Shown here: one piece after another, positions 2,690 through 55,900 of the stretch
How the letters are laid out: every line of letters starts with the position of its first letter
Numbering within the stretch: position 1 is the stretch's first letter
NCBI GenBank assembly: GCA_964019695.1
Contig: OZ026515.1
Span: 43,639,994-43,703,993, forward strand
Direction of reading: 5' to 3'
DNA length: 64,000 bases
From: Loripinus fragilis
Taxonomy: Eukaryota; Mollusca; Bivalvia; Lucinida; Lucinidae
The notes under the pieces: model-generated
What the model saw: only the letters and a program-made list of their open reading frames with translations
Told to the model about the DNA's origin: nothing
Databases searched by the model: none
Position numbers and translations under genes: made by a program

Positions 2690-3021
2690 AAAAAGAAAAA
2701 AAGAAAATATAATTTTTATAGATTTTTTTTAATTCATTGCATTGGTTTCAATTTCTCTTGTTGTTGTATTTGTACTTAACATCACTATCAACAGTTTTGC
2801 CATATAGCTATGGCCAATCATCATACAACAGTGTTCTTGGGCAGTTTACTTTGAAATGGTTTAGCAAACCTTAGTGTATGCATACTATCACATTCATATT
2901 TTTGTGTACAAGACTTGATGACACTTATGAGACTACACAGATGCACATTCTCATCAAGACATTCACTGTTTGTCTTTGTGATAATTACAACTTTCATGAG
3001 CTGGATCGTTGGTTTTCTTCT

Positions 3022-4096: not shown

Positions 4097-4130
4097 CCTA
4101 AAAATCGTCCACTCCCAAATTCGAACCTGT

Positions 4131-31281: not shown

Positions 31282-31903
31282 ATGTCTTACAACAAGAGGA
31301 AGAGAACAACGTCAGATAGACAAGAATTTCAGCTTCCCATAGAAAGCAAACAGCACATCAAGAATTTGTTTGAAAAGAAATTTACCTACAAGAAACCTCC
31401 TGACAACCCATGGAAACTTCCTTATGAAAACTGTTTTTCAGATAATAAAAGAAAAACACGCTCTGGCAAAAGAAATAGTCACTCTAAGGGGCGCGCTAAG
31501 AATATCTCAGAGAACCAATCAGATCGCTCAAATCAGTCATGTGATAGTGGAATGGACGAATCAGATGCTGGCTTAAACAGTCAGGTGGTTTTAAATGAAA
31601 TATGGGCTGTCGATGAACTTTTAAAGATGAAAAATGAGCTCAATGAGTTGAAAAATAATTTAAATGATAAAGACATGATTCTCTGGCACCAACACACAAG
31701 GTCAGTGAATCTGGCGGGTAATATTGCTTCTGAAATTTACCAGAGTTTTCGTCCAGAACTCTGCACGCAGGCTTGGTGTAAATTCTACGAGATAGCATCT
31801 ACGTATTTGGGATTTCTGCGAAAGGCTTCTGTGTTTTCTGTCCATTTGTGTGAAGCACCTGGTGCCTTTGTTACAAGTCTCAATCACTTCATGCTGTCAA
31901 ATG
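31282..31903 (+). CDS. CMTR2: CMTR2 exon 1 (residues 1-207)
   Basis: Begins at the ATG and ends ..TCAAATG|GTAAGT, phase 1. Carries the N-terminal region, a Lys/Ser-rich low-complexity linker (~57-95) and the SAM-binding motif EAPGAF. Confidence 0.93.
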
Positions 31904-34900
31904 GTAAGTTTTGAAATTTCTGCTTTTAACCCTTGAAGCACCAATCACGACTGCATCAGACGACAAATTTTGTGACATCTTTCCTAATTTTTGAAAGAAA
32001 TAAGGAATGATATTTCATGAGAATCGTCTGCCAGCCTTATTTGTTATTTTTGAAAAAGCGGCAAATTTGAAATTGTCGTCTGCTGCAAATTATAGGTGGT
32101 GCTTTAATGGATAACTCTGAAGACTGGGTAATTTTGCATGCTTTTTGCTGCCTGTGGATTGTTTTTATAATTCACTTTTATTTTCTTCAAAAATATCTTA
32201 TAGGATTACTAACAGAGTGTCTGAAACAGATCCAAATCAGGCCCAACATTTTGTTTGACCTAATCTGGGTCCAGACTGTTTGTAAAGGTTATTAGTAGAC
32301 AACAAATGTCACTTCTTGTAATGAAAAGTTAACCATACAGTAATTCTATTAAATTTTGAGCACTTTGTTGAAAGCTACAGTTCCTAATTTTTGAAAGCTA
32401 GTTTTCCTAGCTTTTGACCAGGCCTTTTTGAAAACCAATTACTTGTAATAAGGTGACTTATCCTAAAGTGCCAACCACTAATCTGTAAACGACAACCCCT
32501 AATTCTATATTTCTTGATTAAAAAAGGCACTATGTTTCATGTTCATCATCTACAAATAGTCATGTTATAACTGAAAAAAACTTCCAGTGGCGGACCCAGA
32601 TGGGGTCCAGGGGGCTCACTTGAACCCCCTCTCTGCTCCCCATTTTAGATATCCTATGAAAATGAAATAATTTGGTCTCAGTGAGACCAAATTATTTCAT
32701 TTTCATGGGATATTTAAGAGAACTGAGATAAAATTAGCAAAGCAAACCCCCCAATTGTATCAGGAAAATTAAACCCTCGTGAAAATTTGCGAATTTACAC
32801 TACACTGTGAGGAACTGCTTATTTATCCAGCATTTAAAGAAAGTTCTTTTCTCTAGAATAAGCCTTTAGGGGATAAAAATTTGACAAATTTGCTTTGCTT
32901 CCATATTTTTAACCCATGCATGTCATGATGATGTGGTTTGGGTGCTCAATAGAACCTTCTCATTTAATTTTGTGGTGCTTTAGAGAACCATCTCAAGGAG
33001 GCGGTTTTTGTGCATCCAAACCACATGACAGACCAATTGATAAGAAAATAATGGCAGTTTAACACTCAGTAGTTTTTATTACCCTGACCTATACCTTTGT
33101 TTCTGCATCTGTCAGCAGGCCTTTAGTTAAGAGTGTGTACCAGCAAAATGATTTTCTTATTTCTCAACCGAAACATATGTTGTGTGTACTCAATGAGACG
33201 GTTCTTTTGAGCACCCAAAACATATGCAAAAAGTTATGGGTAAGAAAACATTTACAATTTTACGCTGAAATTTTTTGTTTAATCTTTACCTATGTTTCAG
33301 GTTATGATGGATACTGGGATTGGCGTGCCAGCACTTTGAACCCTTATTATGAAGGCAATGGATCGGGTCAGATGATCAATGATGACAGATTTATCCGCCA
33401 CACTGAACATAACTGGACCTTTGGCGCTGGTGATACGGGAGACTTGATGTGTCCATTAAATCTAGAGAAAATGAAAAGTCAAGGAGAGTTGGCAAAGATT
33501 GACTTGGTACAGTAAATGTTCTAAAATTTTGAACACTTTTCTCGTTCTGTTCTCAAATGAAATGTTGGTTTTCAGAGCTGGAACTCACAAATTGCTTGTC
33601 AGAATAGCAAACAGGGAAGACCCTGATTAGACTGCTTCTTCAGAAGCAGTCTGATCTAGGTCTGCCTTGTTTGTCTTCGCTGTTGTGATAGGCAACTGCT
33701 GTTTAAAATTTTAGAACATTTACCATATTGTATACAGGCAAAGGTCAAGATAAGCAAACTTTTTTTTAACTTATAATTTTGATTATTTTCTTATCCATCA
33801 GTTTAAACATGTGTTTAGTGTGCTCAAAAGTACCGTCTCATTGAGGCAGCTCTTTTTAGGGGTACCCACTACATATGTTTTGGCCGAAAAGTAAGAAAAA
33901 TCAATCAATTTATTTTTAATTACACCCTCTAACCTATATTTATTCACAGGGATGTCAGTAAGATTTAAAACAAAAATATGAAAGTCATGCAGAAACTAAT
34001 GAACTAGGCTTGAGGTTCTTTCAATTTATGTTATATATCTTTCTGGTAATATTCTAAATTTAACCCTTTCCTTCATTCATAGTCATGCTAGGCTCCACCC
34101 AGTATGAATAATTATATAAATAAACTTTCATGTTGGTACATAGAACAAAGAAATTACTTGTCAGGTCCACTAGTGTAGGTTTGGATGTATCATATTTCAG
34201 TAAACCAACAAAGTAGATCCTGATCAGGCAGCTCTTATAAGAGCTGCCCGATCTGGGTCTGCTCTGTTTGCAAAACGTTAAAAGGCATCTAGGAGCCACT
34301 GTGCGCGGCTGTGGTGTGGATAAACCACTTGCCTTGTAAACCAGGGGTCGCAGGTTCAATACCCGTGGGATGAGACTAAGCCGTGGCCCTGTCTCCATAT
34401 GACCTTAGCTGTTGGTGAGAACACAAACACAACAACAGTTAAAAGGCATCTCTATGAGGTAAAGGGTTAATACTTGACTATGTTTTTTGTGAATCAAAGA
34501 CCAGATAACCAACATTTAAGCTGAGAAAGATCAGAAAGTGAAAAGTGTTACCGATTTTCTTGTTTTATTTAGGTGACAGCTGATGGTAGTATAGATTGTC
34601 AAGGTGACCCAGCTGAGCAGGAAGATGTGGTGTCTCGGCTCCAGCATTGCGAGGTCCTCACTGCTCTACAGATACTCACACCAGGGGGAGACTTCATTAT
34701 TAAGATGTTTACATTGTTAGAGTGTAAGGCTATCAGCTTGATGTACCTTCTCAACTGTGCCTTTGAAGAGGTTAGTCATAGGTCAAGATAAACAAAACAT
34801 TTGAGCGTAAAATTTTGAATATTTTCTTACCTGTCATTGTTATCCCCCGCGGAAGGAGGTTATAGCAGAGTTATTGCCCTTTGATTGCCTAAATTTCAAT

Positions 34901-37900
34901 GATTAATTTCCGTCCTCAGCCATAACTAGGTTACCAGTGGATATAATTTCATGAAACAAATGCTGATATATATGACCATGGTGATGTTATGCATGTGAAG
35001 TTTTATCGCATTGTTGTCAGTTATAGCAGAGTTATTGCCCTTTGATTGCCTAAATTTCAAAGAGTTTTTTGTCCTCAGTCATAACTAGGTAACCAATAGA
35101 TAGAATATCATTAAACTTATACTATACTGAATATATGTGACCATAGTGAGGTTATGCATGTGAAGTTTTATTGGGCTATTATCAGGTATAGTGGAGTTAT
35201 TGCCCTTTGATTGTCTAAATTTCAATGATTTTTTCTGTCGTCAGCTATAACTAGGTACAATGTAACTGATGAATGAAATTTCATGAAACTTTTACTGCAT
35301 ATATATGACCATGATGTGGTTATGCACATGAAGTTTCATCATGGTATCATCAGTTATAGAGGAGTTATTGTCCTTTGATTGCATACATTTTAAGGATTTT
35401 TTCAATCCCCAACTATATCTTAGTAAGCAATGGCTCTTATACTGAGTATATGTGACCATGGTGTGGTTATACATATGAAGGTTTGTCAGGATATCCTAAG
35501 TAACAGAGGAGTTATTGCCCTTTGATTGCTTAAGTTTAAATAATTTATACCATCCTCAACCATAACTAAGTAAACAAGAAAGAAATGCTCATCATGGCAT
35601 GTTAGAAAAGCATTGGCGAAATGATCAGTCTTGGCCGCAATGCTTTCCCGTGTAACGTTATGCAAACAATTCAGGGCTCAGTTTAGGCTTTGTCAAGTTA
35701 AAAACCATGTTCAAACAGCATGTGAATCTCATGGTTTGAACATGGATTTTTGTTCATATGACAACGGCTTCAGACATCTTTGGGCAACAAATTCTATGCA
35801 AGAATATTAAATAGGTCATAGATAGGAATCAAGTAGCTCATCAAGAATAAATGCACTCTCTGACTTTTGTTGTTTCCAGGTTCATGTTTTCAAACCTTGC
35901 ACAAGTAAGGGAGGCAACTCTGAGGTATATGTGATTTGTCTGAAATATAAAGGACTGGAAGATGCTAAATATATGAAGCAGTTGTCTACCCTTTACTTTG
36001 GTAAGTGTTCTTTACTGTGGTAAGCTGCTTTATTTTGCTAAGATGTCTAAAGACTTATTAAATTCAATAGGCTGTCATAACTTTTGTAAGTCGTCTTTGC
36101 TGTGGTAAGCTACTTGATTTTGGTAGGCTGTCTAAAGACTTTAAAATTCTGTAAGCTGTCATAACTTTGGTAAACTGTATTTACAGCCCCGCTTTGAAAA
36201 AGGGGGGGGGGCTATATAGGATTTGGGTTGTCTGTCAATCCGTCCGTTCGTTTGTTCGTCCGTTCGTCATAATTTTTCGTTTCCACTCAATATCTTGAGA
36301 ACTCTTTTATAGAATTTATCCAAATTGTGTATGTGCATTGATATTGACATGATCTAGATTTGGATTGTTACACAACATTTTTGGATATTTGTACTAGAGT
36401 TATGGCCCTTGATTTACACCGAAATTTCGTTTCCGCTCAATATCTCGAGAACAAATTGACTGATTTTCACCAAATTTTATATATGCATTCATATTGACAA
36501 GATCTAGCTTGAGATTGTTACACATCTTTTTTTGCATATTTGTACCAGAGTTAAGGCCCTTCATTTAAGGCAACATTTCGTTTCCGCTCTATATCTTGAG
36601 AACAAATGGACAGAATTTCACCAAATTTTATATATGCATTCATATTGACAAGATCTACTTTGGGATTGTTACACATCATTTTTCGCACATTTGTCCCAGA
36701 GTTATGGCCCTTCATTTATGCCAAAATTTCGTTTCTATTCAATATCTTGAGAACAAATGGACAGAATTTCACCAAATTTTATATATGCAATCATATTGAC
36801 AAGATCTACGTCGGGATTGTTACACATCATTTTTCGCTCATTGATTTACTCCAAAATTTTGTTTCCGCTCAATATCTTGAGAGCAAATGGACAGATTTTG
36901 ACCAAACTTTATATAACTTTTTTGTTAGCTGGAATTTTCCGCAAATTTGTAAGAGAGTTATGGCCCTTGATTGATGTCAGAATTACGTTACCACTCAATA
37001 TCCTGAGAAACTCTGGCCTTTAACTGCATGCAAAGCACTGCAGCGGGGCTATAGTCAGATTCTCTGACAATTCTAGTTTCTTTTGTTAGTTGTCTTTACT
37101 TCATTTAATTGATCTTGTATTAACCGTTATTACTTTGCTAAACTGTATTTACTTCGGTGAGCCATGCTTACTTATGTAAGTTGCCATTAAAGTATTGGTA
37201 AGCCATCTTTACTCTTGGTATGTTGTCTTTTCTTTGGTAAACCATAATTAATTATATTTACTTTTAAAGGTGATGTTGAACCACAAGGATGTCTCTTTAG
37301 TAAATCCCAGATCCCAAGCTCCTTCCTGACCCAGCACAAAGAGTGTACCTCCTTCTTCAAAGAGCTTCAGATGGCCTCAATTCAGCGTAACCTTGACCTT
37401 TACAAGGAAATGTCAGAGGAAGAGTGTCTCACCTTGGAAGCAGAGAAACAGTTCTGTATAGAATGTTTCTTTGAGAAATACTACATTGTTCCAATGGAGA
37501 ATCGATGGAGATTGATGAAATATAAAAAGGTATGGTGCAATCCCTTTATAACTCTATGTTTGGGGTCCATAGGAATAAAGGGACAATTTACAATGGAATT
37601 ATAGGAAAATGACCATTTCATGGTCATTTTTCTATAATTCCTTTATAAAATTTCATAAAAAAAACAATTTGAGAGCCACAACATGACCGTGTTATATCCA
37701 ATTTAATCCAAAAATGTGTGGTATCAAAGTTTGTTATAAAGGGACCACTATTCTTGATAGCCCTGGTAATGCAGATTGGAAGTGTTTGTTTGTTTGTTTG
37801 TGTTGATGCTTTACATCCCAGTCAACAATTTTTCAGTCATCTCAGGACACTTTCCTGTCTTCCTGGGTTGAACTAGTACTAAGCAGATGATAAAGTGTCT

Positions 37901-40900
37901 TGCCCAAGGACATAGCACAGTGCCTCTGGTTAGTCTCAAACTCGTACTCGAGTCTAACACTGAGTCACTATGTTCTAAATTGGAAGCATTAAAACTGATT
38001 ATGAAATAAATTGCTGAAAAGAAATATGAATAAAAAGGAAAATGGCTTGTTTGAACCACTGTTAAGTTGACTTTGCGACTTGATCCGTAACTTTGCTTTT
38101 ACAATTTTCCACACTTTACAGCTCTTTAATGAGACAGTGCAGCTTATTAAATGATAAATAGCTTTAGTAAAAATAGACAAGTTCAAACCAAAAAAGGCCT
38201 AAATGTTGGGATATTCCGGAGCTTTGAGTGATCCTCGAAAGAAATAATTTTGATGACATGTCATTGTCATCCTCACACCCATATTTAAAGGTAAATTCAA
38301 GATTTACATGGGCCAGTACACAAGACAGCACTTATCACATTGGCACGCAGAAAAGAATCTCACAAGCCTGCATATACCCCCAGTCTTGACAGAGCCTTAT
38401 CGTCTCACCTACACAAAGTAGAGGAAGCGCTGGACCCAAAGTTCCAAACAATATACCTCTAACCTTGTTGAATATGTTAGCATGCAGGGCCTTTTCCAGC
38501 AATTTAGGGAAAAGGCCCCTGGCCAAAATTGGGAAAAAAAGATTGACTTAACATCAAAATTGGGAGAAATTAACGACATAGAACATTACACGAGTAGCAA
38601 AATATATCCTCAAAATCAAGTTATTTTAGATTGCATTATGCCAAGCATACCACTTAAGCACAAGTGTTTAAGTATCAATCTGATATGGGTCATCAGTGTT
38701 TCTCATAAGTAGTAGTGGTCTCTAAAAAAAGTAAAAAAAAAAATTTTTTTTTTTTTTTTTTTTTTACTGTTCTTAATTGGGAAATTCAGACATGGTATTG
38801 GGAAAAAAGGTGGCAATTTTTTATTGGGAATGGGGCCGAAATTCGGCCCCTAGAGATGGGCAGAAAAGGCCCTGGCATGGGCATTTAACCATTTCCTTCA
38901 TGAATATTCATGCTAAGCTCCACCCACTATAAAATTTCACGTTTGTACGTAGAGCGAAGAAATAACTTGTTAGGTCCAATAAGTGTAGCATCATATCTAA
39001 TCATATTTCCATAAGCAAACAGAGCAGACTCTGATCAGGCAGCTCTTACAAGAGCTGCCTGATCTAGGTCAGCTCTGTTCGCAAAAGTTTAAAAAGGTGT
39101 CTCTATGAGGTAAGGGGTTAAAGGAGGCTTGTGGTCATATGCAATAAGTACCAACATGTGTGTTCTGGCACATATAAACTTGTGATTCTGAGAGACTACC
39201 GATATATATTATTCAACAATTTTTATATATGCTATTATATAGAGAATATTCAAATTTTTTGAATGAATATGCCATATATTTCATTGAGTGAAGCGAAAAA
39301 TGCATATTTCATGAGTGGCGAAGCCACGAATGAAATATACATTTTCTCGCTTCACGAGATGAAATAAATAGCATATTCATTCCAAAAATTTGAATTTTCT
39401 TTTTATTATATATAATTTTAAGCGTAACAGATTTTTGTGCAGTAAATGACGTAATACATGTTCGCACATTGTGTCATATTAATGATGACGTTGCTTAATG
39501 TACAATGACGGCCAAAACTGAAACCATAAGAGCAGGAGTAGAAAAAGTGAAAATTTCAGCAAATCTTGACAATTTGATTACCAAAATTTTCCTTGCGATC
39601 TAACTAAGAAAATGAATACCCACACTTTGTGTTTTTGTCCACTAATAAGAAAGTTACAGGCGTTTGAAATTTTGAAGTGGGCTAAAGGAAGTCAATGGAG
39701 AAAGCAGAGGACATCCAATTTCACCCGTGAAATACAACTTATATTTTCACTGCAGTGAAAATACAGCTTTTTATATTTTCACGACTGTGAAATACAGCTC
39801 TTTAAAATATGCATTATATCTAATCAATATTTTTCTGTATTTCATTACTTTGTATATAATAAAAGCATATACTGAATACTGAGTTGATTTAAGAAATGAA
39901 TTCAATTTTTGGAATGTTCATGGAATCATGAATACTTCGGGTCTCTTGCAAAGTAAGTGAAGCCCGAATGAACAGATCAAATATTGAATTTATTGCATAT
40001 ATTTACATTTTATTATAAAACTTTTATGTCTAAAACATAAAAATTATTTTTAATTAAGAAATTAAAACAGTTTTGTATTTTAAATATAATCGTATTAACG
40101 GTTTTGTCGGTGTGTAAAAGGGAAAAGCAGAACAGCCAGCTTGAACATGGACAGCCAATGGAGCAAACAAGAAGCTTCTTTTGCACGTGCGAATTGGGTG
40201 TGGCTCATTGTAAATCTTAACACCAGTATCATTTCTGTCAAGTGAGTTCGATATTTGAGGCGTATTTCAGTGGCAAGTAAGCTTGGTAGCTGTCAATCAA
40301 ATTTGTGTAATTCATGAGGCTATGAACGGCTGCAAAAATCTAAGGATTTATTAAAGGAGAGCTTGGAAAATGTAAATATTACACTGTATGAATTTCTGAT
40401 TTCTATTATAATTCAGTCACATGGTGCAATTTTGTAAGGAACATGAGTTCATGTGTGGATGAAAAATAGTGTGGATCCTGATTAGCTGGCTTCATTAGAA
40501 GCCAGCCGATCTGGATCTACACTACACTGTTTTACAGATAAGAAACAATTTTGAAATCATTATGTCTATATGGTGAATGTGGTATAACCTGCTTCAGTGA
40601 CCACCTGTATTGAGCAAGCAACCTGTATTAAGCAAGCATATATTCAATTCCCCCAAAAGGCAGATTCATTGAAAAATACCTGTATTAAGCAAGAACCTGT
40701 CTTAAGCAAGCATATTTTGACTATCACATAGGTGCTTTCTTAATACAGGTTGGACTGTATTATATAATGCTAAATATTTTACAGAAGCCACAAGTTCAGC
40801 GTGAATCTACAAGCAAAGCTTCAAAATTCCAAAAGTTAGCAAGTAATATAAAGAAGGAAGGTCGCTTCTGTGGAAGCTTTGATGATCGTCAACACCAGTC

Positions 40901-43900
40901 CTTGTTGCCATGGAAACAGAGAGTTATGGAGTATGAAACTTACACCATTCCCGAAGATTTTCTTGTAACCTGGGCAGAGGTAAGAGCTTCCCCAAGTACT
41001 GTATATAGCATGGGTGAAAGTTTTCAGGATTATTCCTGAATTTAGGATTTTAATAGGTTCTCTGATTTATATTCAATTTATCTATAGACAATTGACCATT
41101 TCAACTTGAAATTTTTGATATTTGTAGGCATACTGCAAGTTTTAAGTTTTGAATTTAAAAAATTCAGGATTTTGGAATCCCATGCTATATATAATAGTGT
41201 TTATCTCATACCATGTGGAAAGAATTGCACTTGTCCGTGTTTCAATTAGGGAATAACTGTATTCAAAATTTTCAGTTGGGGAGGTATATCATCGGACAGT
41301 TGGAAATTTAGTTTTACGGCAACACACAGGCGTAGCCGTAAAACAGGATTTCCAAATGTATATCCGACAACATACTTCCCCAAATGAAAATTTTTAATAT
41401 GAGCCACGACATGAGTTTTCCAACATTGTGGTATGTGCGACCAGCAAAGCCTCAGATCAGGATATGCGCAGTCTGATCAGAGCCTTTGCTAGTTGCTTGA
41501 CTATTCAATGATTGTAAAACTACTGAGCAAACATCATATTGAGTTTCTAACCTTAAAATGAGGCTGCACAGACTCGCCTGAGTCTACACTTGTAAAAATG
41601 CCTCATTGTTGGAAATCACATGTCACGTCTCAATTATGGTTTATCCTCATTCTAATGTACCTCTGCAGTTTCGACTCAAACTGGAGCCTAGCAAGTTGTA
41701 TGAACCTCATGTCATCCAACAAAATGTGACGTAATTAATGATGTCAATCTATTTCTAGCATATCGCATACTATACCATCATAAATTTTTGATGTTATCCA
41801 ATCAGAAGTCGCGTTAGGCCTAAATGAAATATATGTGTGGTTCCTGTTTGCTGCCCAAAAAAAATAGGGTAGGTAGGTAGGCCCTAACATTAAATTAAGA
41901 CATAACATTAAAATCACATGACGGCTTAAAATGTGATACTGAATATACATGTAGTACAAGGGAGTCAATAAACATATTTTGATATATCATAGATAAATTA
42001 ATATTTTATGTCAGAAATATTTGTTTTGTTTGTTTTAACTGTGCATTTCTGAAACCAGTCATTTGAGTCCACTAAATTAGAAAAAGAAAGAAAACTACCT
42101 TGTACGCATGTTACCAAGGATTATGGATAGAATTGACTCACTTCATATTATGAAACATGGTGATGCCTCTATATGCAGTAGTGCTGTGTTTCTCATCACA
42201 TGATGCAGTGTTCAGAGCTGGTTTCCTTTGCTTTGTGTTCCCAGTGTCTCATGATTGTTGTGTGGCTCTTCCTCACGGTGCCAAATGTTTGTGATTGTGG
42301 TATCTCGTGTTCATACTCATTATTTTCAATCTAGAACACCCCATTGGCCCATTTGAAAGGCAATTGGCGAAATTTTGGATGTCTACCGGTCTTCTGTTCG
42401 TAGATAACTGGGTTCTGTATAGGAAAATATATTCACTTCAGGACTGTCTCATCCTGCAAGAAGAATTTAACTCACTTGCTTAGGACAGAGGGAAGCTGAT
42501 GGGCAAATGAAAATTAATGAAACCAGATACTAGGAATAAGCATCACAACCAATTTCATTTTGATTATTCCTTACACAACCTAACCTTTTGAAATGTTCAG
42601 TCAATTAAAATACATTGGTATAACCATCACTGATAACACAAAAAAGCAAGACAGTGGGTGTAAGGCCAGGAAACTAAGGAAATGCTACACTCACAGACCA
42701 TAGACCAACCCACGGCACTGCGAGGGAAGACACATAACATACTTACATGTACCGCTACAAGACAGTAAGAACACAATTAAAGTAAAGCAACCAGCTCTCT
42801 CTTCCACAGTGAAAAAAACTAGAAAGGACATGAAGTACTGCATTACAAAAACAGGGACCAAACACAAAAACCCACAAACATCGGGAGCAATGAGAAACAA
42901 TGAATCAACAACCACAGAACCATCACCTTGGAATTATACAGCGTCTGAACAAAGCCACAAGGATGGATCTTCACCCTGGATTCTGCTGTTGTCAAAACAC
43001 AACATTTGTTTAACTTTGGTTCGGCCTATAATCTTAAGTATGCAGCACTGATTTGAAACCTACATACAGATTTGATTTCAGTAATTCTTTACGTCCCATC
43101 AACAATCTTTCAGTTATATAGGGACGGGTCTTCCTGGGTTGAACCAGTACTAAGCTAGGATAAATGTGTCTTGCTCAAGGACCACAACCCAGTGGCGCCG
43201 GTGAGGCTCGAACCTGTGGCCCTTCGGTCTTGAGTTCAGCACTCTACCACTGAGCCACTGCGCTCCCAAAAAAAACCCCAACATACAATCTAAAACTTTG
43301 ATTTAATTGACAACGCTCCGAGGACGGCTGCCCGTTGGACCTGCAGATGGCGAAATGCAAGTAGTGTTTAGCAAAATGCTTGATGAGTTTGAGTGGACAT
43401 CTCTTGAGGCCTGCATTGTGGGTATTGGTCTTCTTTCCTTCTCTTCCATAGGGTTCATTGTGGTGCTGTGTCTATTGAAAAAGACACGTACTTAAACCTG
43501 CCCACAGTTCAAAAATTACCAGGTTATTACATTGGATACTAGAAATACGCCCAAGAAATATAGTTATGTCCTGAAGAATAAGTTTTTCCCCTCACTGTTC
43601 CCACTTTGAAATATTTCTCCTAATGCTAGTCACTACCCATACAACAGAGGAGATGAAGGCTCTCTCATTTCTTCTAAACACAACAAAAAGTTTGTTGTTT
43701 ATTCTCAAAACTTCAAAATTAGTACTCCTAGGCGTAATTACCAGCACTGATCGATGCCAGTAAAGAAGATATATACTGGGCCGAAATCGCGCAGTACGAA
43801 TCTTGCGCGGTACAAAAATATGATTATCAGCTTATTTGCAATCTATTTTCCGTAAAGTTACAATTTATTTTTGTGTTTTTATCGGTAATAAAAGATGAAG

Positions 43901-46900
43901 AAGGTTGGTATGTATCTAAAAGTTACTTTATTTCACATTAGTTCGATCTTTGTTGCTGTTTTGAAGACCAATTACAAATGTCATTAGTTTTCGTGACCAA
44001 TCGAGTTCCGATGAACTCGGAAAAAAACATGTAAATTTTGACTGTTTTATCACCTGTTTAAATGAAGGCCCCTTCTTTTCCTGAATGACCCCTTTTATAG
44101 ATTATATGAGCCCTATTGGCATATAGATTTAACACAGCACATGGCGGCTAAAGCTACGGAAAACGGTCATTTTTTCCATTTTTTTTTTTTTTTTTTTTAC
44201 AGAAACACCGTTTTAATGTTTAGGGTCGCAGGTTTTTAAATAGGCACGGTCGGCAACCGGAACCACACATATATTTAATTTAGGCCTTACAAAATCAAGT
44301 GCATTAGAATACATTTTACTTGTTTTTGCAACTCCTTCAAAACCTCTGGGCAGATTCATCCGAAACTTGTCTTGAACGTTCGCATATTGTACAATGATGC
44401 GATTCCCCTTCCAACTTCTGCCATTATGCTGGGCTCTTTGTCAAAATCTGACAGCTCTGTTAACCTTTAAAGCGCCACCTATAATTTGCAGCAGCTGACA
44501 GTTTCAAATTTTGCCGCTTTTTCAAAATAACAAATAAGGCATGATATCTCATGAGAATTGTCTGCTGGCAGACGATTCTCATGTAATATCATACCTTATT
44601 TTTGCTGAAAAATGGGAAAGCTGTCCAAAAATTTGTCGTCTGCTGCAGTCGTGATTGGCGCTTGAAGGGTTAAATCATAAAACAATTTTCAATTTGTCTT
44701 CCTTTGTTGTAGAATGAGAGCATTCAGGTGGATTGTCTTGGTGTGAAATATGGTGTCCCGGTTAAAAAGATTAAGAGCTCGAGGTTCTGTTGCGGCCGGT
44801 TGATACAACAGACTCAGGATATCATGCACAATGTGAAGGTAAGGCCTAAATTAAAATTTTATTTGGTTTCCCTTACCCGACCGACCCTGAAAAAAGGCCC
44901 CACTCAAAAAAAAAATTTTTAATTTTCAGTCAAGAATATTTTTTAAAAATTTCATTGCAACCCGAGAGAATTGTCCAATGTAAACAGTGTTATCTTAGCA
45001 AATTGTTTGTGTTTTTAATTTTATTGCCTATAGTAGGACTATACAGTAACCTGCCTAAAATGGCCACTCAAAGATATACACAAAGGTCGTTAAGATAAAT
45101 GGGCGCTAAATGCAGGTCAAAAGTATTACAGAATGCTCCCTGGTAGCATTCTGCAATACTTTTGACCTGCATTATGCAATGTCTTTTTTTGAGTGGCCTC
45201 TTAAGACTTTTACTGTATACAATTAAGTTAAATGGGTATCCAATGTGAGATTTTAAGTTTGAAAAAATAAGTTTCTGACCGACCGACCCATACCGGTAAA
45301 ACAGGGTCGGGTAAGGGGAAACAAAAATATTTTTAAGGTTGGCCAAAGTTGATACAGCCTAACCATATCTAAAAGATACATACGTCAAGTTAAGCAAAAT
45401 TTTTGAGTGTATTATTGTAATTATTTTCTTACCCATCAGTTTAAACATATGTTTTGGGTGCTCAAAAGAACCCTCTCATTGAGATGGTTCTTTTGAGTAC
45501 CCACAACATATATTTTAGTTGAGAAATAAGAAAAAAATATTTTTCAATTAAGTCACTCATGCCTGATTGGAAAGGGATTCATGCCTGATTGGAAAGGGGT
45601 TGGTAAAAATTTTAAATGAAAAAGAACAAAAATACAGTAAAACCTGTGTAAAGCAGCTATTCTCAAAAAGACCAAAAATTGATTTTCAAGACCAATTATC
45701 GCTTAATGCAGGTCAAAAGTATTGCAGAATGCTCCAAGGGGAGCATTCTGCAATACTTTGACCTTCATTAAGCTACCATTTGTCATTAAGATATTTGTTT
45801 TATCTATTTTTGAGTGGCCGTTTTACACAGGTTTTACTGTAAACTTAAAAGATAACACTGTGAATGAAAAAAAAACTCATGGGAATGGATTTAGAAAAAC
45901 AGATTTGGACTCAAAAAGCAGATTTGGACTCTCATGAGGCCAAAAAATGGACATATATTGTTTTTCTATGATGGGGGTATATATTTTCATCTAACTTTTG
46001 TCTGGAAAGGGGTAAATGTCCTAGGACTGTATTAGCACGTCCCTACCCATTTTGATAGTGAGTTACCCCTCCGGGGATAGGTATTTGTAAAAAAAATTGC
46101 AGTTCTCATATCTCCAAAAAATGTTTGTTAAGGTGCTTCGTGGAGATTTCTATCAAGCACCCAGAAGTTATATATCGTAAAAAAAAAAAAAGCTTGACCA
46201 AGACTAAAGCAAAAAGTCACAATTTTGACATATTAACAGATTTCATATTTAAAACCAAACAGTGTATTTACAGTGGCTTGGAGATGGAAGTGAAATCAAC
46301 AGAGACTTAGTGGATACAATAATACAGAAACTGGTATCACTTTTAACCACATCTAACATGGATCTCATAGGGCAGATTGGAGATGAACAAACTACTAAGG
46401 ACACAAAATCTCACAGCGATTCTCATGATTCAAGCCAAGCTAGTGAGATGAGTGCTGAAGATGAGAGAAAAATGGAATCTGAAAGTAAGACTGGTAGAGA
46501 ATTTAACCCTTTCCCAAATTCCCCTACATTCACGACAAATTTCGTCAATTTTGTCATCTGCTGACATGGTTTGGTAGCCTATATTGCATTTAAAATGTAC
46601 CCAGATCAGACCTAAGGTAGCAGTCTGATCAGGGTTCATTATGTTTGCTTTCATAATAAAAAAATTCTGAAGTGCATTTGAATATACTGAAAGATTTTAG
46701 AAACACAACACTAAATTCTCTTCATATCTTTCAAAAAGACAGTTAAATGTAATCTTCCTTTGCTTTGATGATGTCATCATGATTTGGCTTCTTCAGTTAA
46801 CGTTTTTTTAATAGTACTTCTAAACTCAAGGACATTACTGCTTTGAATGAATTTAGTCACTGAAACATTTCTTAAGTAACAGTGATTTTTAGTCATGGGA

Positions 46901-49900
46901 TGAAAGGGTACCAACCGATAACATCAATTAAGCAAACGAGCTGTATCACAGACCTCCCAATTAATATGAGAGTTATTCCTTGATGCCTCTCGTGTTTCTT
47001 CATTCTATTGTAAAGTCATCCGGGTATTTTTGGCTTTATGTAACCTCACGCTGAAGAGCTCCGCTGAGATACTAGGTGAAAATAATGCCAGACGCTTATT
47101 AAAAAGCTTTCAAAATCCTGAAACTTTAATCAAGAATATGTCCCTAAATATGTCCAATCATTTTATAAACACGTTCTGTATCAAAAGAAAATCATTTCTA
47201 ATCGATACTGAAAATTTCAACGCAAAATTTTGAGTTACTTTAAAGATATTGCAAGTTATAAATTCACCAAAATATGTTGGGATAACGTTGAATTACCTGT
47301 GTATTCACTGAGTGTGTAAAGCGCCTAGATGATCCAGAGCGGAATATGACGGAACACTCTTTAACATACACTCAAAATGATTGTTCTGATGATTGTTCTG
47401 CATTCTGCATTGGACAGTCTTTAACATACACTCAAAATGATTGTTCTGCATTCTGCATTGAACACTCTTTAACATACAGTCAAAATGATTGTTCTGCATT
47501 CTGCATTGAACACTCTTTAACATTCAATCAAAATGATAGTTCTGCATTGAACACTCTTTAACATACAATCAAAATGATAGTTCTGCATTGAACACTCTTT
47601 AACATACAATCAAAATGATTGTTCTGCATTCTGCATTGAACACTCTTTAACATGCAATCAAAATGATTGTTCTGCATTGAACACTCTTTAACATACAATC
47701 AAAATGATTGTTCTGCATTCTGCATTGACCACTCTTTAACATACAGTCAAAATGATTGTGCTGCATTCTGCATTGAACACTCTTTAACATACAGTCAAAA
47801 TGATTGTGCTGCATTCTGTATTGAACACTCTTTAACATACAGTCACAATGATTGTGCTGCATTCTGCATTGAACATTCTTTAACATACAGTCAAAATGAT
47901 TGTGCTGCATTCTGCATTGAACATTCTTTAATATACAATCAAAATGATTGTGCTGCATTCTGCATTGAACTCTCTTTTACATACACTCAAAATGATTGTT
48001 CTTCATTCTGTTCTCGAGACAAACATTAAAGTTGCTATCCAAGCGTTGTGTTTTTAAAGTCGGTTAGTATATATGCAGCAGATGGGGGCAAGCAGACAGC
48101 ATTTTCAGGCCAAAAATATTGGCAGAATAAGGGTCAAAATACTATAAGTTCCAATCACAACTGAAGCAGATGACTAATAAGATTTTTAATCTCTCAGTGT
48201 TTACAAGATTTTTACAAGCATTTTGTGAATGAACAGGACCCCAGATAAGAGTGCTTAACTGAAAATTATTTTCTTATTTCTTAACCAAAACATGCTGTTG
48301 TGGGTACTCAAAAGAAACGTCTCAATGAGACAGTTCTTTTGAGCACCCAAAAACACGTTTAAACTGATGGAGAAGAAAATAATCGCAATTTTATGCCGAC
48401 ATTTTTTGCTTAACTGGCCCTATGAAGAAGACCCAATTATAAGACTTAAGTCCTAAAATGCTTGTAAAATTTGCAGCAGACAGCATTTTCAAATTTGACA
48501 CTTCTGTATGAAATCCAATAACTCATCACTCATTGATATTTCATGTGATTTGTCTTCTGGAAGCCAAAGGGAAGAGAAACTTGTTATTTAACCCTGAATG
48601 CGGCAATCACAACAAAAGTCGTCTGCTTTTCTCGTCTGCTGAAATGTTTAAGAAGCTTCTATGACAAACTGTGTGGACCCAGATCAGACTGCTCCTATAG
48701 GAGCAGTCTGTTCTGGGTCCAAGCTGTTTGCTTCTATACTTAATTCGTGAGTAATGTTAGGCAATTGTTTGCAGCAGACGACTACAGCAGACAATATTTT
48801 CAGATGCATTTTTTTTCTTGGTGCTTTAAGGGTTAAAACAACAACAACACTTTCTTTAAATTTGCCCTATTGAAGCCATATGGGCTCTTCCACCTATAAA
48901 ATAACAAGGGAGATGAACTCTTATGGTTCCAATAGGGCTTAAATTTGTCTCTATTAGGTTCTGGTGACCCCAGTTGTGGTGATGTGGCTGTGATGGTAGA
49001 TACTCCCATTGAGAACTCCCCAGTGACAAAATCACCTGTGCTTAGTGGGTTAATGGATCAGGTAAGGACTCCCATTGAGAACTCCCCAGTGACAAAATCA
49101 CCTGTGCTTAGTTGGTTAATGGATCAGGTAAGGACTCCCATTGAGAACTCCCCAGTGACAAAATCACCTGTGCTTAGTGGGTTAATGGATCAGGTAAGAA
49201 CTCCCCTTGAGAACTCCCCAGTGACAAAATCACCTGTGCTTAGTGGGTTAATGGATCAGGTAAGGACTCCCCTTGAGAACTCCCCAGTGACAAAATCACC
49301 TGTGCTTTGTGGGTTAATCGATCAGGTAAGGACTCCCCTTGAGAACTCCCCAGTGACAAAACCACCTGTGCTTAGTGGGTTAATCGATCAGGTAAGGACT
49401 AGTTCTCCAGATAAGGCTTGTGTTTCAGAATTGTTCTTCGTTTCTCATCCGTTCCATATATGTTTCAAATTTTTGCCAAAAATGCCATACCAGTTCAAAG
49501 ATATTAACCCTCTGTATTTGGGAAACCCCTAAACGAGTACTTTTGCATACAGTGAAGACCCAGATGAAATGCAGCATCATGCTGCATTTCATCAGAGTCT
49601 ACACTGTTTGTAAAAGTAAAAAAGATCTTCAGACAAAAGAATAAAATATATTTTTTAAATTATAACCTGGCACCCCTAGATATATACAATGGACTATCCG
49701 AAGTGTATTGTATTAAACCAGAAGGAAAAATCCATTAGTATACAAAGGACTTACCTACTCTCAGTTTATTTTGACTGACTCTCCTATATTAACAAGTTTA
49801 TTTTGACTGACTCTCCTATATTAACAATCAAACTTTTTTTAATTAGAGATGAAAATTTTGCTTGATGGGAAACATGGTGTATGGTAAGGTTTATTTTTCA

Positions 49901-52900
49901 GTTTGTGATATGTTAATTTTAAGTGCATCTTTTTACCAATCTGCATGCATAAACATTTCAAACTATACACACTGTATAGGGATAGTTTCATATCGAGCAA
50001 AATTTACGACACTCAAAAACAGTTTTGACATTATTAAACAAATACAAACACCTAGACTAACTTTGCATCCTGAATTTAACTGTTTCTTAACTTTCCTTGG
50101 ATTGCGTTTATTTCACTTATATTAGTAAGTTTTACTCATGTGCTTAGAGATAATAGCTGATGGAGAAAAACTGTTCCAAACAACCAGAGTGGTACACCAA
50201 TTCCATACAGTGTAAGCACTCTTTAGGCTTAACAAAAGGATTACTATACAGTTATTGACTATTGAAGCATTGGACATGATGTGATGTCGACCTGAGAGTA
50301 CCAATATTGACCGAGGCGGGGCCGAGGTCAATATTGGTATTCTCAGGTCGACATCACACCATGTCCAATGCCTCAATAGTCAACAATTGTTTTATTATAT
50401 AATTTCTCTAAACAAAAAAGCACTTACAACAACAAAATCTTGGCAGTTCTGCTAATTACTATATTCAACAGCAAAGTCTGAATTACACGTATATTATGAA
50501 ACACCAAATCTTGTGAATATCGTGCTGCTGTCACTCACTGAATTGTATTTACAGCAAAACATGCAAGTTTCATACTGAAAGCACACCTGTATGAAGTCTA
50601 TTTTTAGTAACTAATATTGAATGGGAAAGACCCACAGCCCATGCGACATGTAGTTATATTGACTCGAGTGGATAGGCATTTGGGCCAATCAGGAGATGTT
50701 CATTTATAGATTATATAATAATATAAATTATTTTTGGTCAATGCAGTGCAGTCCCCTCATAACACACCTTGTTATAACAGGGATTTGGGCATAACACGTT
50801 CATGTTGTGGCACCCAAATTCTTTATCATGGAATTTAACTAAGAAATATATGAAAATGACCATAAAATGGTCATTTTCATATAATTTCTTTGTAAACTTT
50901 TCCCTTCATAACACAATTCACCCAAAACATAGTGTTATAAAGGTACTGCATTGTAGCATCATCTGGATCATGATTTTAGCTCAGCAGTTCTAGGACAGAT
51001 GATATGAGACAGTGTGTTAAAGTACAGTTGTATAACGTATGTGCTGAGAGCCTGGATGAGAAGTTTGAACTGAGAGAACACTATGACATGGCAATTGCTG
51101 TCAGAGATATTTTGCAGGTAAACTTGATCAGTGCTCAGATTCATAACTGAAATCTACATGAGAAAAAACTTGTGATGCGAAATTGAGATTTTTTCTCCTA
51201 TTTTCTGTGATGATTATCAAGAACATATATATGTTTCAATTGAAAAGAAGGAAAAATTATTTCAGAAATACTATACTCAACAAAAAAAGTTAAGGAAATT
51301 GTGTTTGAGAGGCTATGACAAAAGATCTAAAACATTAAAGGTCTTTTGAATTCCACCGTAGTATAATGTGACCATTTTTCTTTATAACAACACTTTATCT
51401 GGATCTGTAGCGCCCATAGCAGCTTAGTTAATCCATGTCAAAGTTGACTAGTCTTCACTCCATTTTTCGCAAAAATTCAATTTACAGAGCAAACATAGAT
51501 TTTCATACATTAACGTTAGCCAGGTCCCTCGGGAGATGGAAATGTTTAAAACCTAGGACAACAGATCTGGTGGTTATAGAGGGACACTTGATCCGTCAAG
51601 TGTGCATGGATAAGGTGTGGAGGTCTGTTGTCCTGCCTTTTTTGTACGAAAGTCAATGACAGTAACAGGCCTAGGATGACAATGACAGAACACACCTCTC
51701 TAGAATCAGCAGAACAATGTTGTGTGCATTGATCGGTTAGTTTGCTCAATTTTAATACGTCTATGACATTTTTGGACAGAGTGTCCAACGCATAATAATG
51801 GCATCAAGAAACCCCCTGCCTCTCAATGCAGTGTTGCTGGAGATATTGATGCTGATCTTTCAGCACCAAATCACCAGTATTCAGAGTATGCGAAAACGGT
51901 GCTAGTCCTAATTTGTCGCTGACTGGGGACACACTCGTTACTGATGAAGGCATTCTCATCTTCGAAATGTGATGTTTAAGGCTATCACGTTAATTTCGTG
52001 TGACATTCAAAGGAATTGTATTTTAGGTTTTGAAAACTTACATGTTTTTCATGTGTTTATAAGGGAATACTCTGTAGTCATTGTCGCGAAAAATGACTTT
52101 GACCCCTGGGTTACTTGACACTGTGCCACAACAAAGGTATTGGTGCAAGCAAACTATAGTAAACACTTTTCTCAACCGATGACATGTATCTAAACAAATA
52201 AATAAAAAATGAATAATTGTTTGCTTTTGTGTTCTTATGTTGCATGGTTTTCTGAGATTTCCTTAACTTTTTTGTTGAGTATATTATTATTAATCAAATG
52301 ATTTCATATTGGCTTAGTTACATGTTCTAGGTAAAGGGTCAATACAGCTGACCGGGGACCTGTAACTGGGCCAAACCAAATCACTTGATTAATGACATTT
52401 GTTATTAATTAACTGCTTAATATATAGCACTTTTATAGGCAATAGTATCTGTGTCATGCTGGTTTGACCTCTGCTTAATACAGCTGACCACTACTGTTGA
52501 GCTCAAGTCTATATTAATTTACTTTGATCAATACAGAAATCCATGCAGCGCAGACTGGATTGGTTCAGATGATAGAGCGTTAAACTGAGGATCAAAGGGT
52601 AGCTGGCTTGGGTCTCACCTCCAGCAGAGTCACAGTGTTGTGTATTGAGCATGACACTTTATCAGCTGCGTAGTACTGGTTCAACCCAGAAAGACCTGTC
52701 CCAACCTGGCTGGAAAATTGTTGAATAGGACGTAAAGAATCAAACCAAACAAACAAAAATACATGCAGTGTAGTTAATTTACCTTGAGTTGAGGAAAAAA
52801 TAAAAAATGCAAGGCTTGCTGAGCCTTTTATCACTTTAATAAAGGATTTCTAGCGATAAGGCTGACTGTTTCCCTAAATGATATGTGTATTTTATTTTTT

Positions 52901-55900
52901 TTGAAATAACACCTAGAGACGCTGAGCATATTCACCATAGACATACAGACCATTGCACTCTTGTCTGGATGTTTTAAACAAAAAAGAGTTTACTTTTCTT
53001 CTTTTTGATTACCCTGCTTTGTTTAGGATGAAAATTAATTTTGACCACATACTGTACGTGCTATTAATCTATACATGGAAAATTACTGACAATTGAAGGT
53101 AAACAATTGTTCTACCAGGCATGAAACTATCGATTATATTTATTTGTACAGTTGATGCCTAACATAATGATAAAAATTGTGCCATGTTCAATGTGGCTTA
53201 TATTTGTCAGTTGTTAGATGGTATCTTTAGCTTTTACAACCCTATCTCCCCCCAAGACCCAAGATGCCCTTTAGATATGTTGTGTATGTATGTAGCCATT
53301 TCGTAGTCCAAAGGGCTTCTTAGGTCTAAGGGGGGAAAGCACCTAAAAACGAACGGATATGACACAAAAATCAACTTTCCAATGGCAAACGTCATGTTTT
53401 CATGCATATTACGTACCCATGCTCTGAAAGAATAAATTAAACTTTTGGAATTGAAAGTCAATTCTCTCCTAAATATGCCTGCACTTTAAATTTTTGAAAA
53501 GTAGCAATGTGGTCTCTCATAATTTGATCAAAACAGTACCCCGTATGAAGACGTAAAAATGAGGGGTGTCAGCGGAAATCGCAAGTTTTTACTGCTTTAA
53601 CAATATGAAAGGCTTTGTAAAGTATTTCGATATTAAGTGAACATATTTACTTCCATAGTCCATGGATTTTATAAGCATTTCGACAATTTAAAAATTCATG
53701 TTTGTTATTGTAGCAACTACGAAAAATACACACCTTATCGATAGAACTCCTTCAATAAATCAGGAGTGTGAATGTTAGTTTCCATTCATCATATAGTTAT
53801 GAAATTAAAATTACTTTGAAATAGTTTTTTTGGTGTGAAAACGTTAAGATTTTGTCATTATGTACTCAACATTGTCAGGTTTGTACTTAAATTTATTACT
53901 GTTTGATTCTTTGTATTTCAGACCTGTGAAGAAGGTGGTCATGTGATCCTAGAAATGAGGTCATGTCTCACCAGGTTGACAACTGGTCTAGTCTATATTC
54001 TCTACAGATCATTTAAGAAGGTGCAAATATAACATATATATTCATATTTTACAACTGTTGGAAATCATTATGTTGTGAGCTGCACAACAAATGTACTCAT
54101 GGAGAAATAGACCATTCCTCCCACCCCCACAAGTCTCATCTTTTGCCTTCCTTTATAAGTTCTTAAGTAGCCTACATTGCAAACAATATAGACCTAGATC
54201 AGACTGCACCCTTATGAGCAGTCTGATCAGGGTTCATATTGTTTGCTTAGTTTGAAGTGTACTTGAATATCTGCAGCAGACATAAAAAGCAGACAGCATT
54301 TTCAGGATAAAAAATTGTTGGATAAGTTTAAAAATCATTTTCAGTTTCATTAAAAGCTTCATAACACTTTGAAAAAGATTACTCCTAAATCGGTCTTTGG
54401 TAAATAGTCAAGACCCAGATGATGCATAATGTGGTACTTTGGCAGGGTCTACACTGTTTGCTAAGACAAAAACGATCTTCATAGAAAGAAATTCAATATT
54501 ATTTGGAAATTATTACCTGCCAACCCTTGATATATACAATGGACCATCTCAAGTTTATTGTTTTAACCAGGAGGAGGATTCCATTGGTATAGAAAGGATT
54601 TAAGCACCTATCACCTGAGATAAAGATACACTATAACACCATTTTAGACCTGGTTTATGAGTCCATCAATAGTGATTGGATTATTAGTACTGGTTCAATC
54701 CAGGAAGACCTGTCCCTGTTTAACTGAAAGATTGATGATGGGACGAAAAGAATCAAATCAAACAAACAAAACAACTGCATAAGGCACCCAATTCACTTAT
54801 TAGTTGTATTTACAGTCACATCATAAACTATACTTTAAAATAGGTCCAGATAAACAATTGTTTTCAGCGTAAAAGTGTAAATATTTTCTTTATTTTTCAG
54901 TTTTAACATAAGAGATGGTTCTTTTGAGTACCCACAATATGTGTTTTTGTTGAGAAATAAGAAAATCAAGTTTTGATTACGCACTCTTAACTAGAGGCTT
55001 GCTTTAATATACCTGTTTTATCATATGACGTCACATCTGGGAGTGATCTAACGTCATGTTTTAAAATGTTGCATATATATGGTAAAATAATTATGGTCTT
55101 ATTTTTTTTGTTTTTAGGTTGGATTCTTGAGTTACCATGGTAACCTTCTGAAGCAGTATTTGGTGTGCCAACACTACAGTTTCCCTGATCTAGGTAGCTC
55201 AGATCTGAAGGGATATGTCAAGGCAGTCTGTGAAACTCTTTCTAACAGTACAATTCCGTTCAATGTCCTGGCAGTGATACCTATCAACATACTTATAGAG
55301 GGTAAGCCAACAGCATGCTGTAAATTCAGAAATTTTCGCAAGGTTTTATCTTCGCTATAAACTTCTCATCTGCAAAGTTTCTCGAAAATAAAACCCTCGC
55401 AAAATAGCAAAATCACTCTGTCGTTTATTGATGTAGGTAAATAATGCCCTATGTTGGTAAACCATATTGCAAATTTTTAACGTGGCGAAAATGTCTTTTA
55501 ACACGATTCATGAAAATAAATTTCTCATGGAAATTTCAGAATTTACAGTAATTGAGCTGGAATGTGATTTCCAACAATGTGGCATTTTGACAAGTGTAGA
55601 CTCATACGAGCCTGTGCAGCCTCCTTTTAAGTTAAGAACTTCCAAATGCTGTTCGGTCAGTAGCTTAACAGTCAGCGGCATGCAAAGGCTCTGGTCAGAC
55701 TGTGCATGTGTGCAGGCTGATCTGAGCCTTTGCTGGTCGCACATACCACATTGTTGGAAATATCAGGTTGCGGCTCAAATATATGTGAAGCGCAGTGGTT
55801 TAGTTAGTAGAGCGTTAGACTGGGGATCGAAGGTTTGTTAGTTAAAGATTCACACGAGTCACTGTGTTGTGTCCTTTAGCAAGACACTTTATCCACTGCT

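What the first reader, a model, noticed from the sequence alone, without database searches (positions are those of the whole stretch)
49002..49391. CMTR2 exon 9 ends in six tandem, in-frame 5' splice sites
Seen: six 66-bp units, each ending GATCAG|GTAAGG or GTAAGA, nearly identical. All six possible exon ends are in phase 0 with exon 10. Established: equal neighbouring donors compete, and choice depends on U1 binding, distance and kinetics. Inference: one transcript could yield up to six proteins differing by multiples of 22 residues (859 to 969 aa). The repeat arose by duplicating the exon-intron junction, which turned intron bases (GTAAGG) into coding V-R. I know of no description of such an array in a cap methyltransferase.
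Basis: partly seen in the sequence, partly recalled or inferred. Interest (0 to 1): 0.88.

Follow-up and report, generated by a model that had tools for sequence, protein, structure and literature searches.

The report
Repeated splice donors ending one exon
A short DNA repeat has copied one exon-intron boundary of an mRNA-cap enzyme gene six times in a row; the cell probably uses the first copy and discards the rest, and the same genome holds similar arrays in other genes, which makes it a natural test of how splice sites are chosen.

Summary
Six 66-bp units (49002-49397) carry strong donors, CAG|GTAAGG (unit 3: GTAAGA), all phase 0 with an exon at 50980. The units differ at six positions and no two are the same.

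The reading 'up to six proteins' is not supported. Introns on both sides are long (2,473 and 1,588 nt). For equal donors in exon-defined minigenes (365-nt introns) only the upstream one was used (PMC9225289). So donor 49061 (exon 9 = 104 nt) is the best guess, with units 2-6 mostly intron.

The genome supplies kin. A pattern search lists 23 distinct arrays of three or more CAGGTAAG in the 100 rows shown of 420. In three of the ten whose preceding exon I tested, that exon matches a conserved gene: HEATR5 (15 donors, 65 bp), uricase (17, 71 bp) and DNMT1 (8, 31 bp). In all three only the first donor leaves an open frame; each of the 37 later ones adds a stop. Periods divisible by three are 6 of 17, as chance gives, so CMTR2's in-frame unit needs no special cause.

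The kind is known (human CBS 31-bp VNTR, UBC arrays). The number of arrays in one genome is the interesting part. No RNA data were available.

The parts
48958..49061 (+). exon 9 as predicted with the first donor (104 nt)
   Evidence: acceptor cttaaatttgtctctattag|GTTCTG; phase joins exon 8; first donor
48958..49391 (+). exon 9 at its longest, sixth donor (434 nt)
   Evidence: open frame through all six units
49002..49067 (+). unit 1, donor after 49061 (CAG|GTAAGG), predicted main donor
49068..49133 (+). unit 2, donor after 49127 (CAG|GTAAGG)
49134..49199 (+). unit 3, donor after 49193 (CAG|GTAAGA)
49200..49265 (+). unit 4, donor after 49259 (CAG|GTAAGG)
49266..49331 (+). unit 5, donor after 49325 (CAG|GTAAGG)
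49332..49397 (+). unit 6, donor after 49391 (CAG|GTAAGG)
49398..49400 (+). ACT shared by unit start and intron; possible microhomology of the first duplication
46274..46484 (+). exon 8, donor AAA|GTAAGA, phase 1
46485..48957 (+). intron 8 (2,473 nt), holds a separate 48-bp tandem array
49392..50979 (+). intron 9 with the sixth donor (1,588 nt; 1,918 nt with the first donor, by arithmetic)
50980..51117 (+). exon 10, phase 0
31282..55301 (+). cap methyltransferase gene (CMTR2-like), 12 exons modelled; C-terminal end not modelled
35991..36173 (+). diverged tandem array (period 19/85) across the exon 4 donor at 36000; none of the downstream GTAAG copies gives an open frame

Best explanation
A minisatellite that spans an exon-intron junction: the last 60 nt of exon 9 plus the first 6 nt of intron 9 were tandemly duplicated to six copies, so six near-equally strong donors compete for one acceptor (sequence: shown; duplication history: inferred). 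Because both flanking introns are long, the exon is recognised across itself, and the donor nearest the exon 9 acceptor, at 49061, wins most of the time. Units 2-6 are then spliced out as intron 9, which makes copy-number change in the array nearly neutral (inferred). Minor use of later donors would add 22 residues per unit to a Ser/Thr/Pro-rich stretch after the methyltransferase domain. The array is one of a recurrent class in this genome.
For: Predicted U1 pairing is -11.5 kcal/mol for five of the six donors, stronger than all 11 other modelled donors (-4.5 to -11.0); the third, at -11.0, ties with the exon 4 donor. All 11 modelled introns are 1,066-3,733 nt. Five published minigenes with two identical CAG/guaagu donors and 365-nt introns used the upstream donor exclusively (PMC9225289, parts read). 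With donor 1 exon 9 is 104 nt, among the other exons of 99-260 nt (exon 1: 622); with donor 6 it is 434 nt. Natural experiments in the same genome: the exon before the first donor is HEATR5 (Pfam E=1.3e-10), uricase (top PDB E=0.0026, 9 of 13 listed sequences uricase) and DNMT1 (top PDB E=2.5e-4, 11 of 12 listed sequences DNMT1). Exon lengths to the first donor are 104, 96 and 110 nt. Donor 1 is open in 3 of 3, and 0 of 37 later CAGGTAAG donors leave the frame open. The next exons of HEATR5 and uricase follow in phase 0, uricase ending in SKL-stop. Within this gene, the exon 4 donor also heads a decayed array; each of the seven GTAAG copies downstream of it gives a stop. Periods divisible by 3: 6 of 17 arrays including CMTR2, as for no selection on frame.
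Against: No RNA evidence for any of these loci. The human rule may not hold in this animal. In human data with near-equal donors, all architectures pooled, the upstream site was preferred in 60% of events, so not always. Frame arguments at HEATR5, uricase and DNMT1 show that donor 1 must be used enough, if the genes work, not that later donors are silent; I did not check whether other copies of these genes exist. The frame does not discriminate at CMTR2, where all six are open. UBC, a repeat with an AGGT in each unit, gives a ladder of isoforms.
Confidence: 0.6

Rival explanations
1. Stochastic ladder: all six donors are used at comparable rates, giving a family of proteins that differ by multiples of 22 residues, as the first reader proposed and as in UBC.
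For: Donors near-equal in strength; all in phase 0; UBC gives RT-PCR ladders and Sanger-confirmed 3- and 4-unit products (PMC10809524).
Against: Equal donors in exon-defined minigenes went exclusively to the upstream one. Kin arrays at three conserved genes leave only donor 1 with an open frame. UBC sites are used as 5' and 3' sites inside the repeat; unit ends here have a poor 3' site context.
Confidence: 0.18
2. Intron-proximal choice: the sixth donor is used, exon 9 is 434 nt, and the protein carries all six repeats; the five upstream donors are decoys.
For: Open frame through six units. Downstream preference was seen under strict intron definition, and in about 60% of all human alternative 5' site events when strength was not controlled.
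Against: Flanking introns are long; a 434-nt exon would be the second largest of the 12 modelled; substitutions show no coding constraint (little power); in the three identified kin arrays the last donor would add a stop.
Confidence: 0.15
3. Each 66-nt unit acts as a GT-AG mini-intron (dual-specific or exitron-like splicing), removed from a long exon.
For: Every unit is bounded GTAAGR...CAG and is a multiple of 3; [quoted passage not shown]
Against: Pyrimidine share before the unit ends is 0.38-0.50 with runs of 2-3, against 0.50-0.88 with runs of 3-9 at the 11 modelled acceptors (the ranges touch); 66 nt is very short next to the gene's modelled introns.
Confidence: 0.04
4. Assembly artefact in copy number.
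For: Tandem repeats are prone to mis-assembly (general knowledge; no call).
Against: All six units differ; 396 bp is short; a single locus was found in an assembly whose first three contigs are 138-147 Mb.
Confidence: 0.03

Closest known systems
Human CBS 31-bp VNTR across the exon 13-intron 13 junction, c.1444_1467+7(16_21)
   Same: By its name the unit is the last 24 exonic plus first 7 intronic bases, repeated 16-21 times, with single-base variants between units (PMC2630376, passages seen): the same architecture.
   Different: 31 bp is not a multiple of 3, so units cannot all be read in one frame; the human array is polymorphic, here only one assembly was seen. That it lies at exon 13-intron 13 and shows alternative splicing (Lievers 2001) is recalled, not read.
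Human CBS 844ins68, a duplicated intron 7-exon 8 junction
   Same: A boundary duplication whose spare copy is spliced out, the more distal of the two sites being strongly favoured (PMC2630376, passage).
   Different: A single 68-bp duplication at the start of an exon, not a donor array.
Human UBC tandem dual-specific splice sites (and VCX3A)
   Same: Tandem in-frame coding units, each with an AGGT that can serve as donor; number of units in mRNA can vary (PMC10809524: outline, results part 1, UBC and evolution sections, discussion).
   Different: UBC introns begin and end inside the repeat and units are whole functional proteins; here the acceptor lies outside the array and the unit ends look like poor acceptors.
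Exon-definition cross-exon proximity rule for equal 5' sites
   Same: Same situation: identical CAG|GTAAG donors in one exon with introns above 200-250 nt (PMC9225289: outline, first parts of results and discussion).
   Different: That work is on human data and minigenes with two donors; here a natural array of six.
[quoted passage not shown] AGGT model)
   Same: Tandem duplication across an exon-intron boundary creates spare splice sites (PMC4974935, abstract read).
   Different: [quoted passage not shown] here donors are duplicated and no new intron is shown.

Membership tests
Junction-spanning minisatellite (CBS type) | repeat unit holds both exon end and intron start | tested here: met
   60 exonic nt + GTAAGR per unit
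Junction-spanning minisatellite (CBS type) | copy number varies between individuals | not testable with these tools
   one assembly, one locus
UBC-type tandem dual-specific splice sites | AGGT in every unit, unit length a multiple of 3 | tested here: met
UBC-type tandem dual-specific splice sites | site has an acceptor-like context | tested here: inconclusive
   pyrimidine share 0.38-0.50 against 0.50-0.88 at modelled acceptors; the UBC 3' site named in the paper also scores low
UBC-type tandem dual-specific splice sites | use as both 5' and 3' site in RNA | not testable with these tools
   no RNA data
Exon-definition setting for equal donors | flanking introns longer than 200-250 nt and near-equal donor strength | tested here: met
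   introns 2,473 and 1,588 nt; duplex -11.5/-11.0 kcal/mol
Exon-definition setting for equal donors | upstream donor used | not testable with these tools
   no RNA for CMTR2; in three kin arrays only the first donor leaves an open frame
Cap 2'-O-methyltransferase CMTR2 | FtsJ/Rossmann methyltransferase domain | tested here: met
   PF01728 E=1e-22; PDB hits EP424R and CMTR1 among 7
Cap 2'-O-methyltransferase CMTR2 | closer to CMTR2 than to CMTR1 | tested here: inconclusive
   no CMTR2 structure among the PDB hits; protein database switched off; name rests on recall of the human sequence
Cap 2'-O-methyltransferase CMTR2 | catalytic residues intact | not tested
   not examined

The most novel reading that the evidence does not exclude
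In this genome, tandem expansion that starts at splice donors is a recurrent way in which introns grow and minisatellites arise: the first donor stays in use, later copies become intron and are neutral, so arrays of 3-26 CAGGTAAG donors accumulate, including at conserved genes (HEATR5, uricase, DNMT1, CMTR2). About one in three has an in-frame unit and can pass repeat units into the protein when first-donor choice slips, as could happen at CMTR2.
Probability: 0.45. Interest if true: 0.66.

Novelty: new member of a known kind. Interest (0 to 1): 0.5.

Why it matters
How the spliceosome picks among equal, neighbouring donors has, in the work I read, been tested in two-donor minigenes. Here one genome carries natural arrays of 6-17 near-identical donors at conserved genes, three out of frame (built-in controls) and one in frame. 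Counting junctions in ordinary long-read RNA from this species would test the cross-exon proximity rule outside mammals and show whether junction-seeded repeats are a route to longer introns or to repeat proteins.

Tried and rejected
Retrocopy test: a spliced copy in the genome would show the donor used; none found. The genome search returned 13 rows, 12 of them in the window and one weak match elsewhere.

Pfam also reported Extensin_1 over the repeats (residues 663-784, 44.9 bits); it is far below that family's cut-off of 105 and I take it for repeat composition.

Selection test between units: six variable sites, 5 nonsynonymous and 1 synonymous; neutral expectation not rejected. It has little power with six changes.

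Enrichment of repeats at donors in this gene: 2 of 12 modelled donors lie in TRF arrays, but TRF arrays cover 16% of the window, so about 1.9 are expected: no enrichment. None of the 12 exon starts lies in one.

Exon 4: a weak GTAAG at 35904, 96 nt upstream inside exon 4 and outside the array, would also keep the frame (-5.0 kcal/mol).

Kin arrays: the pattern search gave 233+187 matches against 112+61 for the same pattern read backwards. That control does not match the frequency of the motif itself, so I claim no excess. The 100 rows shown collapse to 23 distinct places by my count. I fetched 20 of the 22 others, leaving out C3:9716174 and C3:111057170, whose matched text as shown was the same as C3:9710014. 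In each region I analysed the largest cluster of CAGGTAAG; in L037 and L044 that is not the cluster that matched (of the 15 plus-strand regions checked, the other 13 agree; the five minus-strand regions were not rechecked), which leaves the count of 6 of 17 unchanged. Four of the 20 (L039, L045, L047, L052) have no modal period and are not in that count. I tested candidate exons from 10 of the 20 against Pfam at E up to 1: 1 hit, HEATR5; the uricase and DNMT1 exons gave none there. Six of these ten went to the PDB: uricase and DNMT1 hit; HEATR5 gave only a chain named THR5 at E=0.71, L046 E=1.3, L040 E=0.36, L050 nothing. Ten of the 20 were not tested for homology; some of these (for example L037, L041, L044) look to me like plain satellites. 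The DNMT1 next exon was not sought. A second genome survey with CAGGTAAGT did not complete.

Literature: searches gave 0, 1, 6, 5 and 0 papers; by title and abstract start none describes this architecture. One search found 1,437 papers with two of CMTR2, mollusc, splice; of the 12 listed none describes such an array by title and abstract start. The library is partial.

Rfam: no family in the window. Viral contigs: no relative.

Full report
WHAT IS THERE. The window holds a gene on the + strand whose modelled 12 exons run from 31282 to 55301. The joined translation has an FtsJ methyltransferase domain (PF01728, E=1e-22) and matches solved cap 2'-O-methyltransferases (EP424R, CMTR1). I agree with the name CMTR2, but from recall of the human protein; no call separates it from CMTR1. 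Searches of the genome (1.99 Gb, 685 contigs) found one copy and no spliced retrocopy. Exon 9 starts at 48958. From 49002 it is a run of six 66-bp units, each ending CAG|GTAAGG, except the third, GTAAGA. The frame is open throughout, and any of the six ends joins exon 10 at 50980 in phase 0. The octamer CAGGTAAG occurs on this strand of the window only in the array. Predicted pairing with U1 is -11.5 kcal/mol for five and -11.0 for one, against -4.5 to -11.0 for the 11 other modelled donors (U1 end from memory).

HOW IT AROSE. The units differ at six positions, all six are distinct, and neighbours differ less (mean 1.8) than non-neighbours (2.8), as expected from stepwise tandem duplication. 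Outside the array the intron continues ACTAGTT where a further unit would read ACTCCC, and the exon before unit 1 reads GGTAGATACT where a unit end reads GGTAAGGACT. The simplest history is duplication of the last 60 exon bases plus GTAAGG between short matches (ACT, GGTA); that is inference. Of the six differences five change the amino acid and one does not; neutral expectation is not rejected (P=0.53). There is no sign that units 2-6 are kept as protein, though six changes give little power.

WHICH DONOR WORKS. Two proximity rules conflict. Across a short intron the downstream donor wins. [quoted passage not shown] In this gene all 11 modelled introns are 1,066-3,733 nt, and the two beside exon 9 are 2,473 and 1,588 nt. 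With donor 1 exon 9 is 104 nt, like its neighbours; with donor 6 it is 434 nt. So the prediction is mainly donor 49061, the shortest protein, with units 2-6 removed as intron. The same human survey also shows exceptions: 60% upstream, not all, when strengths are near equal.

NATURAL EXPERIMENTS IN THE SAME GENOME. I searched the whole genome for three CAGGTAAG at 43-73 bp spacing: 420 matches, of which 100 rows were shown; these collapse to 23 distinct places by my count, CMTR2 among them. I fetched 20 of the other 22. Candidate exons ending at the first donor were tested from 10 of the 20 against Pfam and from 6 of those ten against the PDB. Three are exons of conserved genes. L035: HEATR5 (PF20210, E=1.3e-10), 15 donors, period 65. 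L036: uricase (top E=0.0026, nine of 13 listed PDB sequences are uricases), 17 donors, period 71. L038: DNMT1 (top E=2.5e-4, 11 of 12), 8 donors, period 31. Each has a usable acceptor 96-110 nt upstream of the first donor. Reading past the first donor meets a stop within eight codons, so donor 1 is open in 3 of 3 and 0 of the 37 later CAGGTAAG donors are. For HEATR5 and uricase I found the next exon in phase 0, the uricase one ending ...SKL-stop. The later donors are predicted to pair with U1 as well as the first or better. If these genes work, the first donor must be used often enough at each. That is the outcome predicted for CMTR2.

WHY CMTR2 IS IN FRAME. Of 17 arrays with a modal period (16 of the 20 fetched, plus CMTR2), six have a period divisible by three: about one in three, as chance gives. 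One of them, L040 (66 bp, 3 donors), also reads through in frame. So the in-frame unit at CMTR2 needs no special cause. It does mean that a slip to a later donor is harmless to the frame there.

A SECOND ARRAY IN THE SAME GENE. The exon 4 donor (36000) also lies at the edge of a tandem array, diverged and so probably older (periods 19 and 85), whose donor-like copies run on into intron 4. Each of the seven GTAAG sites downstream in intron 4 gives a stop at the same place (index 389); the first keeps the frame, as does a weak GTAAG 96 nt upstream that is not part of the array. The first is also the strongest there, so it does not test equal donors. Since tandem repeats cover 16% of the window, two of 12 donors inside arrays is what chance gives.

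WHAT IS KNOWN. The architecture has an exact human precedent: the CBS VNTR named c.1444_1467+7(16_21), whose unit is by that name 24 exon plus 7 intron bases (PMC2630376, passages only). Tandem arrays of AGGT sites that make a ladder of isoforms are described for human UBC, with VCX3A as a relative and 77 human introns of this type (PMC10809524). Intron gain by tandem duplication across a boundary is known in potato (PMC4974935, abstract). CMTR2 here is a new member of a known kind. What I did not find described, within the listings and 90 of a partial library, is a single genome with several conserved genes each carrying such donor arrays.

LIMITS. No RNA, no relatives and no second individual were available; the protein database was off and the wider genome survey did not complete (last try). 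Gene names HEATR5, uricase and DNMT1 rest on short exons, and I did not check for further copies of these genes. The species is not identified by any search.

Noticed in passing
35991-36173 and 37115-37251: Exon 4 donor lies at the edge of a diverged tandem array of TTTACTTTGGTAAG-like units that runs into intron 4; the seven downstream GTAAG copies all give a stop.
   Followed up: partly
L035, donors at 3029-4104: HEATR5 exon followed by 15 CAGGTAAG donors at 65-bp (some 120-bp) spacing; all later donors add a stop.
   Followed up: partly
L036, donors at 3041-4174: Uricase exon followed by 17 donors at 71-bp (once 68-bp) spacing; the terminal exon with SKL-stop lies at 6731.
   Followed up: partly
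L038 (read on the minus strand), donors at 3015-3262: DNMT1 exon followed by 8 donors at about 31-bp (once 62-bp) spacing.
   Followed up: partly
L040 (read on the minus strand), donors at 3055-3187: Second in-frame case: three donors, 66-bp period, open 22-residue repeat; gene not identified.
   Followed up: partly
L046, L047, L050, L053: Further donor arrays preceded by open stretches that look like exons with acceptors; no homolog found with the searches made (L046 and L050 also 78, 83).
   Followed up: partly
47389-48010: 48-bp tandem array (13.4 copies) in intron 8; the unit is a multiple of 3 and open frames of 120 (+) and 109 (-) residues lie in parts of it.
   Followed up: no
21833-22546: 237-residue open frame with a MYND zinc finger (PF01753, E=7.4e-11), a separate gene or exon.
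   Followed up: no
50248-50390: Inverted repeat with 70-nt arms (90% complementary) and a 3-nt loop in intron 9, between the array and exon 10.
   Followed up: no
1-1181 and 3022-4097: Two arrays of a 100-bp satellite, 11.9 and 10.8 units.
   Followed up: no
G000:C1:51789690-51789860: Weak second methyltransferase match (39% over 57 residues, E=2.6e-4), perhaps CMTR1.
   Followed up: no
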